Below, piece after piece: positions 8,125 to 25,419 of a stretch of DNA of 64,000 bases. Source of the DNA: an uncultured Flavobacteriales bacterium (GTDB taxonomy: Bacteria > Bacteroidota > Bacteroidia > Flavobacteriales_D > Parvicellaceae); NCBI GenBank assembly GCA_943787535.1, contig CALSMU010000004.1, positions 62,001-126,000 of the forward strand, given 5' to 3'. The translations under genes were made by a program, and so were the position numbers. Under the pieces are notes generated by a model. That model was not told the origin of the DNA. It made no database searches and saw only the letters and a program-made list of their open reading frames with translations. Position 1 is the first letter of the stretch; each line of letters opens with the position of its first letter.

Positions 8125-9885
8125 TTAAACTTTTTCTTCAATCTTTAAGCCTAAACTCAATTCTTTTAATTGACTTGAATCAATTGGAGAAGGAGCATCA
8201 ATCATCATGTCCCTTCCACTATTGTTTTTTGGGAAAGCGATAAAGTCTCTGATACTTTCTTGACCACCAAATAAAGAACAAAGTCTGTCAAAACCAAAAG
8301 CTAAACCACCATGAGGAGGGGCTCCATATTCAAAGGCATTCATTAAAAATCCAAATTGAGCCTCTGCTTCTTCTTTTGTAAACCCAAGAAGGTCAAACAT
8401 TCTTGATTGAATGTCTTTATCATGGATACGGATAGAACCTCCACCTACTTCAACCCCATTGATGGCTAAATCGTACGCATTTGCTCTAACTTCTCCAGGG
8501 GCAGAATCTAATTTGTCAAAATCTTCTTTCTTTGGTGATGTAAACGGGTGGTGCATTGCATGGAATCTTTCAGAATCTTCATCCCATTCTAGTAATGGGA
8601 AATCCATTACCCATAAAGGTTTAAATACATTTGTGTCTCTCAATTCAAGAGCATCCCCCATATGTAAACGTAATTCGTTCATTTGGCTTTGAACTTTTAG
8701 CTTATCTCCGCTAAGGACTAATAATAAATCTCCAGCTTTCGCTCCACATTTATCAGCCCAAGCTTTTAAATCCTCTTGCGAGTAAAATTTATCTACTGAT
8801 GATTTGAAAGAGCCATCTTCATTGCACTTAACATATACTAATCCTTTCGCTCCAATTTGCGGACGACGAACCCAATCTGTTAATTTGTCCAATTGCTTTC
8901 TCGAGTAATTTGCACAACCTGTTGCACAAATTCCTGTAACCAATTCAGCCGAATCAAATATTGCAAACCCTTTATTCTGAGTTAAAGCGTTTAAATTATT
9001 TAACTCCATTCCAAAGCGAATGTCTGGCTTGTCAGAACCATAACGTTCCATAGCATCAGCATATGTCATTCTTGGGAAATCTTCAGAAAAAGAGACGCCT
9101 TTCAATTCTTGAAATAGGTTTTTGATTAACCCTTCGAAAGTATTCAGAATATCCTCTTGGTCAACAAAAGCCATTTCACAATCTATTTGCGTAAACTCTG
9201 GTTGTCTATCGGCTCTTAAATCTTCGTCTCTAAAGCACTTTACTATCTGATAATAACGATCATAGCCACTAACCATTAAAAGTTGCTTAAAGGTTTGTGG
9301 AGATTGCGGTAATGCATAAAATTCACCTGGATTCATTCTGCTTGGAACAACAAAATCTCTTGCTCCTTCGGGAGTAGATTTAATCAAGTATGGTGTTTCA
9401 ACTTCAATAAAATCCAATGTGTCTAAATAGGTTCTAGCTGCTAATCCCATTTTATGCCGCAAAATCATATTGTTTTTCAATGGATTTCGTCTTAAATCTA
9501 AGAAGCGGTATTGCATTCTCAATTCTTCACCACCATCTGTTTCATCTTCAATTGTAAAAGGAGGAAGTTTAGCTTCCTTCAAAACGGTTAATTCAGAAAC
9601 ATTAATTTCAATCTCTCCAGTTGGAATATTTTTGTTCTTGCTACTTCTTTCAGTAACTATTCCTTTGGCTTGAATAACAAACTCACGTCCCAATTTTTTT
9701 GCTTGTTCACAAAGCTCAGCGCTAACATCGTTATTGAATGCTAATTGCGTTATGCCATATCGATCTCTTAAATCTACAAACGCCATTCCTCCTAAATCTT
9801 TCGATCGTTGAACCCACCCGCATAAGGTAACTTCTTGGTTTGCATTTTCAATTCTTAACTCTCCGTTCGTATGTGTTCTGTACAT
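8125..9885 (-). CDS. aspS: Aspartyl-tRNA synthetase
   Basis: A 586-residue class IIb synthetase that charges tRNA-Asp. N-terminal OB anticodon-binding domain ([20 protein letters not shown]), class II motif 2 ([19 protein letters not shown]), the bacterial GAD insertion (about 290-410), and motif 3 near the end ([10 protein letters not shown]). Length is normal for the bacterial type. It is a single-gene unit with its own promoter just upstream, and nothing suggests horizontal origin. Confidence 0.97.
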
Positions 9886-22685: not shown

Positions 22686-22758
22686 GCTTCCATAGTTCAA
22701 CAGGATAGAATAGTCGCCTCCTAAGCAACAGATCTGGGTTCGAGTCCCGGTGGAAGTA
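22686..22758 (+). tRNA. tRNA-Arg (anticodon CCT)
   Basis: A cloverleaf can be drawn by hand. Acceptor GCTTCCA (22686-22692) pairs with TGGAAGT (22751-22757), discriminator A. D stem GTTC/GAAT. Anticodon stem GTCGC/GCAAC has one C-A mismatch and loop CTCCTAA, so the anticodon is CCT. T arm CTGGG-TTCGAGT-CCCGG. CCA is not encoded. tRNA-Arg(CCT) genes are frequent integration sites, and the accessory region begins right after this one. Confidence 0.93.
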
Positions 22759-22814
22759 CTAATTGAAATCATAAAATACTGTTATTGAAGTATTTGTGGT
22801 TTTTGTATTTGTTT

Positions 22815-22834: not shown

Positions 22835-22977
22835 AATTTCAAATATCCAATACCTTTTCCAGCATCTACTTACCCCACTTTCTTCTCCATTTATATTTCT
22901 CATACTTCCACGATGTAGGACGAGAGAATAGGCAAATGAATAGTAGTTCAATGTATTTTACTTGGTAAATATAAACA

Positions 22978-23029
22978 TTGGATTGAAAAATTATTACCTT
23001 TCACTCGCTTAGGCACTTAAAATTGAATT
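22978..23029 (+). promoter_or_regulatory. Repeated promoter-leader cassette, copy 1
   Basis: From TTGGATTGAAAAATTATTAC to the ATG at 23030. It is nearly identical to 24003-24059, and its first ~25 bases match 23510-23535. It contains TACCTTTC (22995-23002), a TAnnTTTG-like -7 box. The shared part also includes TTTCACTCGCTTAGG and AAAATTGAATT just before the start codon, so a transcription start and a common 5' leader were duplicated together. Confidence 0.65.
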
Positions 23030-23464
23030 ATGAAAAGATTATTCTATTTAGGAGTTGTACTGATTTTTGGTTCTTGTGGAGAGAATGAATCAGAAAGTGG
23101 TTCATTAACAGTGAATGTGGACGGAAGAGAGGTTTCAACCATTAAAATAGGTAATTTAGAAGTGATGACCGAAGATTTAGGAGCGATGGATTGGGATGAA
23201 GCAAGCAAGGCTTGTTCAGCCTTAGGAGATGGATGGCGATTACCTGCAAAAGATGAATTAAATATCTTATATGAACAAAAGGATAAAGTTTGCGGCTTTG
23301 ACAATTACGATACAACGTCTTATGTTTCACCGCTTTACGCCACCTATTGGAGTTCGACAGAGTACGATGACTTCAATGCGTGGCTACAGAATTTCGGCAG
23401 GGGTTACCAGATAGCCACGAATAAGATCGACGCAAACTATGTTCGCGCTGTTCGGGATTTTTAA
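23030..23464 (+). CDS. DUF1566 (C-type-lectin-like) lipoprotein
   Basis: A 144-residue lipoprotein (MKRLFYLGVVLIFGSCGEN, lipobox FGSC) with a C-terminal DUF1566/Lcl-type domain: DWDEASKACSALGDGWRLP, KDELNILYE, then YWSSTEY and YVRAVRDF. The domain is a small C-type-lectin-like fold in which the last ~40 residues carry the exposed ligand-binding loops. Those loops differ from the paralogue at 24384-24935 in a way that suggests targeted diversification, and the 3' end is clearly more GC-rich than the rest of the gene. A linker of about 20 residues joins lipid anchor and domain. Ligand unknown. Confidence 0.85.
   Translation: MKRLFYLGVVLIFGSCGENESESGSLTVNVDGREVSTIKIGNLEVMTEDLGAMDWDEASKACSALGDGWRLPAKDELNILYEQKDKVCGFDNYDTTSYVSPLYATYWSSTEYDDFNAWLQNFGRGYQIATNKIDANYVRAVRDF
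23345..23461 (+). other. Candidate diversity-generating retroelement variable region (copy 1)
   Basis: Codons 106-144 of the DUF1566 gene. Aligned with 24813-24932, the middle codons differ mainly at positions 1 and 2 while ending in the same C or T (TAC/GAC, GAC/GCC, TTC/AAC, GGC/ACC, TAC/TCC, ATC/CTC, GAC/ACC, GAT/GCT). This is what adenine mutagenesis of AAC/AAT codons produces. The flanking framework codons show ordinary third-position changes. No template repeat or reverse transcriptase is in the window. Confidence 0.5.
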
Positions 23465-23509
23465 CCATTTATCTATTTAACAGTTTTAATGGTTTTGTGT
23501 TTACCCCCG

Positions 23510-23540
23510 TTGGATTGAAAAATATATTAACTTTCGTTAA
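23510..23540 (+). promoter_or_regulatory. Repeated promoter-leader cassette, copy 3 (partial)
   Basis: TTGGATTGAAAAATATATTAAC then TTTCG; it contains TAACTTTC (23528-23535) at the same offset as the boxes of the other copies. The repeat decays after that. It lies about 50 bases before the lipoprotein gene at 23591. Confidence 0.5.
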
Positions 23541-23590
23541 GTGAACAATAACGTTCTTTTATCAAGATTAATGAATAAAATAATAGAAGT

Positions 23591-23917
23591 ATGAGAGAAT
23601 TAGTTTTTGTGTTTATGGTTTTCTTTGGTTTATCTTCTTGTAATCAAGAGGAAATAGAGAATTTAAATAATAAGGTAGAACTTCTCGACCAAGAGAACGA
23701 AGAACTTAATTCTCATTTAGAACAAATGAATTATAGGCTTTCTGAGTCCATAAAAGAGGGTGTGTCAATAGAGTCTTTACAATATGAACTTAAGGCTTGT
23801 AAAGAGGAGTATAATGAATATAGATACGGGAGTCACTGTTGTTTAACAAGGGGAGGGCATAAAGTCTGTGGAGCAGACAATGTGATTGACTTTTTAAACG
23901 ACCATTATAAACCATAG
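23591..23917 (+). CDS. Small coiled-coil lipoprotein
   Basis: A 108-residue protein. MRELVFVFMVFFGLSSCNQ gives a lipobox (LSSC). Residues ~20-65 (EEIENLNNKVELLDQENEELN and on) form a coiled coil. The C-terminal ~40 residues hold four cysteines (LKAC, HCC, KVC) and end GADNVIDFLNDHYKP. The Cys cluster could bind metal or make disulfides. Not recognised. It is followed after one base by the hsdR-like remnant. Confidence 0.65.
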   Translation: MRELVFVFMVFFGLSSCNQEEIENLNNKVELLDQENEELNSHLEQMNYRLSESIKEGVSIESLQYELKACKEEYNEYRYGSHCCLTRGGHKVCGADNVIDFLNDHYKP

Positions 23918-23918
23918 T

Positions 23919-24011
23919 ATGGGAGGAGAATACACAGAAGACAAGATAATCGAGCAAATGTGCATTGATATTTTTCAAAAGGAATTAGATTGGGAAACAG
24001 TATTGGATTGA
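23919..24011 (+). pseudogene. Type I restriction HsdR N-terminal remnant
   Basis: A 30-codon ORF. GEYTEDKIIEQMCIDIFQKE and DWETVLD resemble the first residues of type I restriction endonuclease R subunits (YTEDKLIEQ...F.ELGWE pattern). The frame stops where the repeated leader cassette begins (TTGGATTGA supplies the TGA), so recombination at the repeat appears to have removed the rest. No hsdS or hsdM is present in the window. The match is short, so the call is tentative. Confidence 0.5.
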
Positions 24012-24059
24012 AAAATTATTATCTTTCACTCGCTTAGGCTATTAACTTAAAATTGAATT
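24003..24059 (+). promoter_or_regulatory. Repeated promoter-leader cassette, copy 2
   Basis: From TTGGATTGAAAAATTATTAT to the ATG at 24060, near-identical to 22978-23029 with small indels after TCGCTTAGG. It contains TATCTTTC (24020-24027) as the -7-like box. Confidence 0.65.
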
Positions 24060-24350
24060 ATGAAAAGATTATTATTCATCACCCCATTACTATTTTTACT
24101 TTCTTGCTCAGAAAGTGTTACAAAAGAAGAACAATCAAATGCTCAGCAAAACGTTGAAATACAGTTAATAGATGAACATTGGGCTAAGTTGTGTAAGGCA
24201 GCGGAGGAAGGTGATAAAAGTAAATTTTCATTAGCCATCAATTCATTCAAATCCGTAGAAATGGCTATTGAAGAAACGGATTCTAAAGCATACCTTCTTT
24301 CATTGAAGTTTAAACTTGACTCCTTAGAAGGAGTTCTAAATAATCATTAA
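24060..24350 (+). CDS. Small lipoprotein (96 aa)
   Basis: MKRLLFITPLLFLLSCSES is a lipoprotein signal (lipobox LLSC). The mature ~80 residues are helical and charged, with no motif I recognise (EHWAKLCKAAEEGDKSKFS, SLKFKLDSLEGVLNNH). It shares its promoter-leader and first four residues with the DUF1566 gene at 23030, so the cassette has been reused with a different body. Followed by the second DUF1566 gene after 33 bases, probably co-transcribed. Confidence 0.65.
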   Translation: MKRLLFITPLLFLLSCSESVTKEEQSNAQQNVEIQLIDEHWAKLCKAAEEGDKSKFSLAINSFKSVEMAIEETDSKAYLLSLKFKLDSLEGVLNNH

Positions 24351-24383
24351 GGACTGAAGCTGGAGATGATTTAAAACGAAATT

Positions 24384-24935
24384 ATGAAAAAGTTACTCTA
24401 TTTAGGAATTATATTAATACTTGGTTCTTGTGGACCGAATAGAGAGGAGATTAAAGAGGAAGAAAGAATAAGGATGGAGGTGAAAGAAGAGTTGGAAAAA
24501 GAGAAGAGATTGGAGAAAGAGAAGAGATTGGAGGAAGAAAAGAGGTTGGAAGAAGAAAAGAGGTTGGAAGAGGAAAAGAGGATTGAAGAAGAGAAGAGGT
24601 TGGAGGAAGAGCAACGAATTAATCGATATATATCATCGATCATCAAAATCGGTAATTTAGAAGTGATGACAGAAGATTTGGGAGAAATGAATTGGGCCGA
24701 TGCAATGAAGGCTTGTGCTGATTTAGGAGATGGATGGAGATTACCAACAAAAGATGAATTAAATATTTTGTATGAAAACCGAGATAAAATTGGCGGTTTT
24801 GCTAGTGCCTCCTATTGGAGTTCTACGGAGGACGATGCCAACTATGCGTGGTTTCAGAGTTTCACCGATGGTTCCCAGAGCAACTGCTACTTTAAGCTCA
24901 CCACAAATTACGTGCGTGCTGTTCGGGCTTTTTAA
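24384..24935 (+). CDS. DUF1566 lipoprotein with long charged stalk
   Basis: A 183-residue paralogue of the protein at 23030-23464. The lipoprotein signal is MKKLLYLGIILILGSCGPN. Residues ~20-85 are an uninterrupted Glu/Lys/Arg helix containing seven six-residue repeats (E-E/K-x-K-R-L-E type), predicted as a rigid single helix or coiled-coil stalk. The head, from KIGNLEVMTEDLGEMNWADA to YVRAVRAF, is a DUF1566/Lcl-type domain with GDGWRLPTKDEL and YWSSTED. It looks like a binding head held away from the membrane on a length-variable stalk. Ligand unknown. Confidence 0.85.
   Translation: MKKLLYLGIILILGSCGPNREEIKEEERIRMEVKEELEKEKRLEKEKRLEEEKRLEEEKRLEEEKRIEEEKRLEEEQRINRYISSIIKIGNLEVMTEDLGEMNWADAMKACADLGDGWRLPTKDELNILYENRDKIGGFASASYWSSTEDDANYAWFQSFTDGSQSNCYFKLTTNYVRAVRAF
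24498..24623 (+). repeat. 18-bp tandem repeat, 7 units, in frame
   Basis: Seven 18-base units (126 bases) encode residues 39-80 of the stalk: KEKRLE x2, EEKRLE x2, EEKRIE, EEKRLE, EEQRIN. A unit length divisible by three means unit gain or loss changes stalk length without breaking the gene. Confidence 0.85.
24813..24932 (+). other. Candidate diversity-generating retroelement variable region (copy 2)
   Basis: Last 40 codons of the second DUF1566 gene, one codon longer than copy 1. Rich in NNC codons (GAC, GCC, AAC, ACC, TCC, AGC, TGC, TAC, CTC) and more GC-rich than the rest of the gene. A short GC hairpin follows at 24973-24985. Confidence 0.5.
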
Positions 24936-24972
24936 CAATTTACCCATTCATCTATTTAACAATTTTATAAAT

Positions 24973-24985
24973 ACCGCGAAGCGGT
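24973..24985. repeat. Short GC hairpin downstream of variable region copy 2
   Basis: ACCGC-GAA-GCGGT, a 5-bp stem, in otherwise AT-rich DNA 37 bases after the stop codon. Diversity-generating retroelements often need a hairpin at this place, but it could equally be a weak terminator. Confidence 0.35.
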
Positions 24986-25058
24986 CGTTTCTTGTTATGT
25001 AGGTTTATCTCTACCGTATAGCATTTAGTATTTCGTGTATTGATAGATTGTCAGCTTG

Positions 25059-25340
25059 TCAAGTCCCCCAACTAGTTGTATAAACCTTTGGTTCGCTTTT
25101 TTCGAAGATTTTAGACTCTACCAATTTATACTTAGGTAGTACAAACGCACTCATCTTTAACATTAGGTCTAATGCTTTTGCAGGGTCTTGTTTTCCTACT
25201 TCATCAAACCATTCTTGGAGCTTGTCCTTGTTGTTGTGTAGTAGTTCAGAATAAACCTCTCTAATCTCATTAATTTGCTTGCTAGAGCCTCGTTTACTTT
25301 TCTTACCAGCTGATGCTCCTGTGTCTTTATCAAATGCCAT
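25059..25340 (-). CDS. Phage-like small protein (possible small terminase-type)
   Basis: A 93-residue protein with a basic N-terminus (GKKSKRGSSKQINEIREVY), a helical middle (LQEWFDEVGKQDPAKALDLMLKMSAFVLPKYK) and a loose tail. The layout (basic start, ...L.P/DP-x-KALDL..K...F-x-LPK) resembles small phage proteins of Bacteroidota annotated as terminase small subunit-like; the match is from memory and weak. It sits alone, without a large terminase, in the accessory region. The promoter side carries an inverted pair of 9-base elements. Confidence 0.55.
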   Translation of the reverse strand: MAFDKDTGASAGKKSKRGSSKQINEIREVYSELLHNNKDKLQEWFDEVGKQDPAKALDLMLKMSAFVLPKYKLVESKIFEKSEPKVYTTSWGT

Positions 25341-25349
25341 ACGTTAGAT

Positions 25350-25419
25350 TTACGTTACTTCTATCTATTGTATAAAAGTTTGAAAGTTGTATGTTAAATT
25401 CTTACATTACGTAACGTAA
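25350..25419. promoter_or_regulatory. Operator-like inverted elements TTACGTTAC / GTAACGTAA
   Basis: TTACGTTAC at 25350-25358 and its exact reverse complement at 25411-25419 lie in the divergent gap between genes at 25340 (-) and 25451 (+). The second site is itself within the inverted repeat TTACG-TAA-CGTAA (25407-25419). This fits a dimeric regulator controlling one or both genes. Confidence 0.4.

What the first reader, a model, noticed from the sequence alone, without database searches (positions are those of the whole stretch)
23345..24932. Two lipoprotein lectin-like heads carry the footprint of a diversity-generating retroelement
The DUF1566 proteins at 23030-23464 and 24384-24935 are paralogues. 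In their last ~40 codons nearly all differences are at codon positions 1 and 2, with the third base kept as C or T: TAC/GAC, GAC/GCC, TTC/AAC, AAT/TAT, AAT/AGT, GGC/ACC, TAC/TCC, AAT/TTT, ATC/CTC, GAC/ACC, GAT/GCT. Framework codons in between (TGG, GCG, CAG, GGT, AAG) are identical, and the flanks show ordinary synonymous changes. Random drift would favour third positions. Adenine-specific mutagenesis of AAC/AAT codons, the mechanism of diversity-generating retroelements (DGRs), gives exactly this pattern. DGR variable regions typically sit at the 3' end of genes encoding C-type-lectin-like folds, and known targets include lipoproteins such as the Legionella one. The reverse transcriptase and template repeat must then lie elsewhere in the genome.
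Basis: partly seen in the sequence, partly recalled or inferred. Interest (0 to 1): 0.85.

Follow-up and report, generated by a model that had tools for sequence, protein, structure and literature searches.

The report
Retroelement-written lectin genes missing their writer
Two predicted lipoprotein genes in a Flavobacteriales genome end in lectin-like tips, one of which matches a mutation template found in another bacterium at nearly every base except the template's adenines, so they were very likely written by a diversity-generating retroelement, yet the enzyme and template of that system are not found in this genome assembly.

Summary
The footprint is real. The window alone gives only weak evidence (codon-position skew p 0.015; third-base retention p 0.16), but relatives settle it. 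DGR loci in other Flavobacteriales carry, beside a DGR-type reverse transcriptase (RT), an A-rich template repeat (TR) of these variable regions (VRs). Copy 2 (24792-24926) differs from one such TR at 26 of 53 adenines and 1 of 79 other bases (p 8e-12), as cleanly as that DGR's own VR (29/53, 2/79). Copy 1 fits less well (19/46, 6/65).

A same-genus genome keeps half of a DGR-like RT.

Beyond the finding: this VR/TR type occurs in 71 named species genomes; 50 hold a VR but no hit to the DGR-RT profile, five of them named strains. A DNA hairpin lies just behind 29 of 89 VRs but 1 of 16 TRs; the window's only one is at 24973-24985, behind copy 2. Best reading: relict or orphan DGR targets.

The parts
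23030..23464 (+). Copy 1: predicted lipoprotein gene, 144 aa, Lcl_C domain residues 51-142 (about 23180-23455)
   Evidence: ORF; Pfam; lipoprotein signal judged by eye from MKRLFYLGVVLIFGSC (recalled motif, no tool)
23345..23455 (+). VR of copy 1
   Evidence: 19/46 mismatches at TR A, 6/65 at other bases against TR of L074
24384..24935 (+). Copy 2: predicted lipoprotein gene, 183 aa; long helix residues 20-84 (about 24441-24635), Lcl_C domain residues 100-181 (about 24681-24926)
   Evidence: ORF; Pfam; model pLDDT 90.3
24792..24926 (+). VR of copy 2
   Evidence: 26/53 mismatches at TR A, 1/79 at other bases against the G404 TR, with a one-codon gap
24973..24985 (+). Hairpin ACCGC-GAA-GCGGT, 46 nt behind the VR of copy 2; proposed DGR target hairpin, could also be a terminator
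   Evidence: only such hairpin in the 64-kb window; behind 29 of 89 VRs elsewhere
24657..25395 (+). Segment repeated at the third copy (G000:C4 near 236.7 kb), 88.4% over 741 columns; downstream of the stop codon 97-100% in most blocks

Best explanation
The lectin-like tips of the two genes match template repeats of Flavobacteriales DGRs except mainly at the template's adenines, and are therefore very likely variable regions written by such a DGR, whose RT and template this lineage has probably lost, leaving them as relict targets. How it would have worked (established for BPP-1, inferred here): the RT copies the TR RNA, misreads adenines, and the cDNA replaces the VR at the gene's 3' end, helped by a hairpin just downstream, which changes the binding face of a predicted surface lectin. 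Shown: the adenine-biased differences, the hairpin behind copy 2, no RT or TR found in the assembly, half of a DGR-like RT in a same-genus genome. Inferred: that the writing happened in this lineage and has stopped, and that later change is ordinary mutation and recombination between copies.
For: TR matches: copy 2 26/53 at A, 1/79 elsewhere, 0 of 20000 permutations reach it; cognate pairs 29/53 and 2/79 (G404), 23/52 and 0/80 (G461). Copies 1 and 3: 19/46 and 6/65, 19/46 and 7/65. TR, RT, target gene and hairpin together in G404 and G461. Lcl_C / C-type-lectin fold. Hairpin. Loss of the writer; 213-aa RT fragment in G003 inside a 1.95-Mb contig; in the own genome the neighbouring oxidase gene is present but homology stops where the fragment would start. 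Frozen state: the representative P0121 keeps the VR of copy 1 unchanged behind another N-terminus; copies 1 and 3 share bases at 38 of 45 TR-A positions, against 21 and 22 of 45 for the pairs with copy 2, so copy 3 inherited a copy-1-like VR.
Against: Copy 2 has hardly drifted (1/79), which would also fit a recent or present writer. The G002 counterpart of copy 2 has an identical 61-bp 3' flank and 88.8% identity over 125 bp upstream, but a different, frameshifted VR of the other TR type, so rewriting or exchange went on within the genus. The assembly is incomplete. Copy 1 has six off-template bases and no hairpin. The same VR type without an RT hit in 50 of 71 genomes could mean that cassettes travel rather than that each lineage lost its RT.
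Confidence: 0.7

Rival explanations
1. The VRs arrived already written: Lcl_C-VR cassettes move between genomes and phages by recombination, and this lineage need not have had its own active RT.
For: 50 of 71 genomes with this type have a VR but no RT-profile hit; viral contigs carry such VRs; the non-A bases of copy 2 match the G404 TR at 78 of 79, while the fumarase region is 68% identical to G461 and finds no match in G404; copy 3 is a mosaic.
Against: The lipoprotein-type genes are found mainly in close relatives, and G003 keeps an RT fragment. No mobility gene or boundary was identified. TR frameworks may simply be strongly conserved. No tree was made.
Confidence: 0.15
2. An RT and TR exist in the part of the genome missing from the assembly or on an unbinned plasmid or phage, and the genes are live remote targets.
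For: Completeness 94%; copy 2 is nearly drift-free; a VR-only phage pair shows live-looking variation.
Against: None of the five family genomes holding this VR DNA has an RT-profile hit; copy 1's VR is unchanged in P0121; copy 3 is frameshifted.
Confidence: 0.12
3. Ordinary diversifying selection on a lectin face, no retroelement.
For: The window alone is weak: p 0.015 and p 0.16.
Against: Selection does not know which bases are A in a non-coding template of another genome: 26 of 27 differences of copy 2 fall there.
Confidence: 0.02

Closest known systems
Treponema denticola target genes in isolates lacking RT and TR (PMC4891356, passages read)
   Same: VR-bearing, mostly lipoprotein target genes left without the core DGR, differing from a TR of other isolates mostly at adenines; the authors also name acquisition alone as an alternative.
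   Different: There the TR comes from the same species; here from other families, and the VR type is spread over several phyla and viral contigs.
DGRs with DUF1566 targets (PMC4159848 and PMC6642488, passages read)
   Same: Same domain family, VR at the 3' end of the gene.
   Different: Those were found through RT and TR; here both are missing from the genome.
Thiohalocapsa PB-PSB1 targets diversified in trans (PMC10907252, passages read)
   Different: There RT and TR lie in the same genome.
BPP-1 target hairpin (PMC3240598, passages read)
   Same: Inverted repeat just behind the VR; in BPP-1 required for efficient homing.
   Different: Published phage stems are 7-10 bp with GRNA loops; here mostly 5 bp with GNA or GNAA loops, function untested.

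Membership tests
DGR variable (target) gene | differences from a TR concentrated at the TR's adenines | tested here: met
   copy 2 26/53 against 1/79; copy 1 19/46 against 6/65; TRs are from other genomes
DGR variable (target) gene | VR at the 3' end of a gene for a C-type-lectin-like fold | tested here: met
   predicted model for copy 2 only
DGR variable (target) gene | hairpin just downstream of the VR (BPP-1 type) | tested here: inconclusive
   present behind copy 2 and copy 3, absent behind copy 1, stem shorter than published
DGR variable (target) gene | ongoing variation at TR-A positions | tested here: inconclusive
   copy 1 VR unchanged in P0121; G002 counterpart of copy 2 rewritten; no strain reads available
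complete DGR | DGR-type RT in the same genome | tested here: not met
   assembly 94% complete
complete DGR | TR in the same genome | tested here: not met
   only the three VRs
complete DGR | accessory protein (Avd or HRDC type) | not tested
   not searched

The most novel reading that the evidence does not exclude
A split, communal DGR: writer (RT and TR) and targets live in different genomes. VR cassettes with a conserved hairpin spread without their writer through bacteria and phages, and are rewritten in trans whenever a cell or phage with the RT shares the cytoplasm. Two viral contigs whose names point to one sample, neither record with an RT hit, carry a VR gene that differs at 17/45 TR-A and 0/66 other VR bases, with 6/197 differences upstream and 0/60 downstream.
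Probability: 0.2. Interest if true: 0.85.

Novelty: new variant of a known kind. Interest (0 to 1): 0.62.

Why it matters
DGR surveys usually start from the RT; one large survey says that it would not detect targets that are not next to it (PMC8144416). Here 50 of 71 genomes with this VR/TR type show no RT hit, so the reach of DGR diversification may be underestimated. It makes testable whether VRs are written once and then inherited or traded, or are written in trans from other replicons.

Tried and rejected
An ungapped TR/VR scan inside ten relatives' loci gave one irrelevant hit. The RTs of G001 and G023 looked promising but match phrog_2825 best, not phrog_1423 like the G003 fragment. Ordinary selection was rejected. 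Print was searched for RT-less VRs (listings); passages of PMC4891356, PMC8144416, PMC3521204, PMC8867640 and PMC10907252 were read. T. denticola is the precedent found. I found no DGR locus whose own target is the small IGNLEVMTEDLG lipoprotein type: the 3 loci of that type picked out of the 96 VR sites lie in genomes without an RT hit, so who writes that subtype is open. No tree of VR cassettes against species was made.

Rows dropped and limits: of 20 TR-like sites, L109, L165 and L173 were left out of the TR set as out of register, leaving 17, of which 16 distinct. The 96 VR sites include one counted twice (L091/L115). The TR was the best of 16 and the gap place the best of 30, so p 8e-12 is optimistic by up to about 500-fold. 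Over all 96 VRs the mismatch rate is 2015/4376 at TR-A and 400/6277 elsewhere, but the search pattern itself fixes 24 bases in loci found with it, so I do not lean on it. The orphan/RT-genome comparison used labels set before (L174 and L172 wrong) and is not used. The entropy row used a pattern that fixes the framework and is not used; of six proteins there, P0057 and P0081 were left out of the pairwise counts. In one search five gene pairings were compared; the one quoted is the cleanest. The other four give 24-37/200 differences upstream, 15-30/45 at TR-A, 1-7/66 at other VR bases and 0-2/60 downstream.

Full report
What is there. The two ORFs exist as described and carry Lcl_C domains. From the window alone the claim would stay open.

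The template. An RT fragment found in G003 was used to look for DGR-like RTs in a sample of the order: 20 of 399 genomes match at E 1e-20 or better. Beside four of these RT loci (L072, L073, L074, L079) the first look already showed an A-rich copy of the segment seen in the window. A framework pattern then found 83 stretches in named species genomes and 12 in viral contigs; over all loci held, 116 distinct sites could be read, 20 TR-like and 96 VR-like. The 12 aligned RTs share GLPIGN and YVDD motifs; that these fit DGR RTs is recalled, though the G003 fragment also matches the phage RT family phrog_1423. In G404 and G461 the target gene with its VR, a hairpin, the TR and the RT follow each other.

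The test. Copy 2 differs from the G404 TR at 26 of 53 adenines and 1 of 79 other bases (p 8e-12; 0 of 20000 permutations), like the cognate pairs (29/53 and 2/79 in G404; 23/52 and 0/80 in G461). The TR was the best of 16 and the gap place the best of 30. Copy 1 gives 19/46 and 6/65, copy 3 gives 19/46 and 7/65 against their best TRs. Two of copy 1's six off-template bases (23413, 23419) lie in a 12-nt stretch where copies 1 and 3 can be aligned with offsetting indels; I read this as later drift.

The missing writer. The own genome has no RVT_1 match (the control genomes rang in 3 of 14), no match to the G003-type RT or to the RT profile, and only three VRs for a TR query. Of 39 genomes of the family, five hold this VR DNA: G000, G002, G013, G017 and G023; none of the five has an RT-profile hit. 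G023 does have an RVT_1 gene, but of the phrog_2825 kind. G003 of the same genus has a 213-aa RT fragment 3.7 kb from a 455-aa gene with a weak Lcl_C match. In the own genome the fragment's neighbour, an oxidase-like gene, is present, and homology stops where the fragment would begin.

How wide. Of these 71, 21 have a hit to the RT profile, some of them weak and perhaps other RT kinds, and 50 have none. Each of the 50 has a VR-like site. Among the 50 are five records titled as named strains: Psychroserpens jangbogonensis, Flavivirga jejuensis, Polaribacter filamentus, Lacinutrix jangbogonensis and Aquirufa antheringensis; one named strain, Psychroserpens burtonensis, has an RT. Incomplete MAGs therefore do not explain it all. 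G406, G431 and G465 keep a TR with at most a scrap of RT. None of 12 viral records has an RT hit, nor do 53 further viral stretches of up to 16.8 kb; such records may be fragments.

The hairpin. A GC-rich stem of at least 5 bp with a 3-4 nt loop lies within 150 nt behind 29 of 89 VRs and 1 of 16 TRs, against 0.0046 expected per 150 nt from the rest of the same loci; a narrower pattern gives 29 of 94 and 1 of 20. The VRs are related, so the computed p (2.5e-45) is not a true probability. Stems vary on both sides (ACCGC/GCGGT, GTCGC/GCGAC, CCCGC/GCGGG, TCCGC/GCGGA), which speaks for structure; 7 of 29 have a G-T closing pair. About two thirds of the VRs lack it in this form, copy 1 among them. 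The window has one, at 24973-24985. A T-rich stretch often follows, so it could also be a terminator. In BPP-1 such a hairpin is needed for efficient homing (PMC3240598).

Hypervariation in relatives. P0045, P0059 and P0074 are identical over residues 1-91 and differ pairwise at 18-24 of the last 42; with P0046 the numbers are 2 and 16-20. In one gene of two viral contigs 17/45 TR-A bases and 0/66 other VR bases differ (the other pairings are less clean, see Tried and rejected). So the family is likely diversified somewhere today. In the own lineage signs are mixed: the VR of copy 1 is unchanged in P0121, a representative of 6 sequences on 12 contigs of which I saw only the one, whose N-terminus differs; copy 3 has a copy-1-like VR in a copy-2-like downstream context; but the G002 counterpart of copy 2 has another VR between near-identical flanks, although housekeeping DNA of the two genomes is 90% identical.

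Fold. The copy 2 model (pLDDT 90.3, pTM 0.62) matches the Legionella Lcl C-terminal domain best (E 1.7e-8, 34% identity), then C-type lectins; the profile finds the same chain by sequence. That the varied residues form a ligand face, the lipoprotein signals and surface exposure are inferred.

Verdict. DGR-written target genes without a detectable writer: authorship very likely, loss of the writer likely, split or traded systems possible.

Noticed in passing
22977-23043 and 24002-24073: Near-identical repeats (92% over 72 columns) in front of two lipoprotein-like genes (23030 and 24060); a third short piece lies near 23510. P0121 joins the N-terminus of the 24060 type to the Lcl_C domain of copy 1, so N-termini seem to be exchanged here.
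   Followed up: partly
22686-22759: tRNA-Arg (CCT) just upstream of the gene cluster; whether the cluster is an island was not tested.
   Followed up: no
L070 about 8690-9300 (G000:C4 near 237 kb): The third VR copy follows, out of frame, a 201-aa ORF that resembles an aspartyl protease by eye (resemblance recalled).
   Followed up: no
25059-25340: A 93-aa ORF on the minus strand behind copy 2 is repeated almost unchanged behind copy 3, and pieces of it occur in G003; no phage family matched.
   Followed up: partly
L178 5752-6780 and L180 2881-4010: Viral contigs with three VR-lectin genes in tandem, about 344 nt apart, each with a different VR.
   Followed up: partly
L144, L150, L174: Genomes with a TR but an RT reduced to a scrap or absent (G406, G431, G465): stages of DGR decay.
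   Followed up: partly
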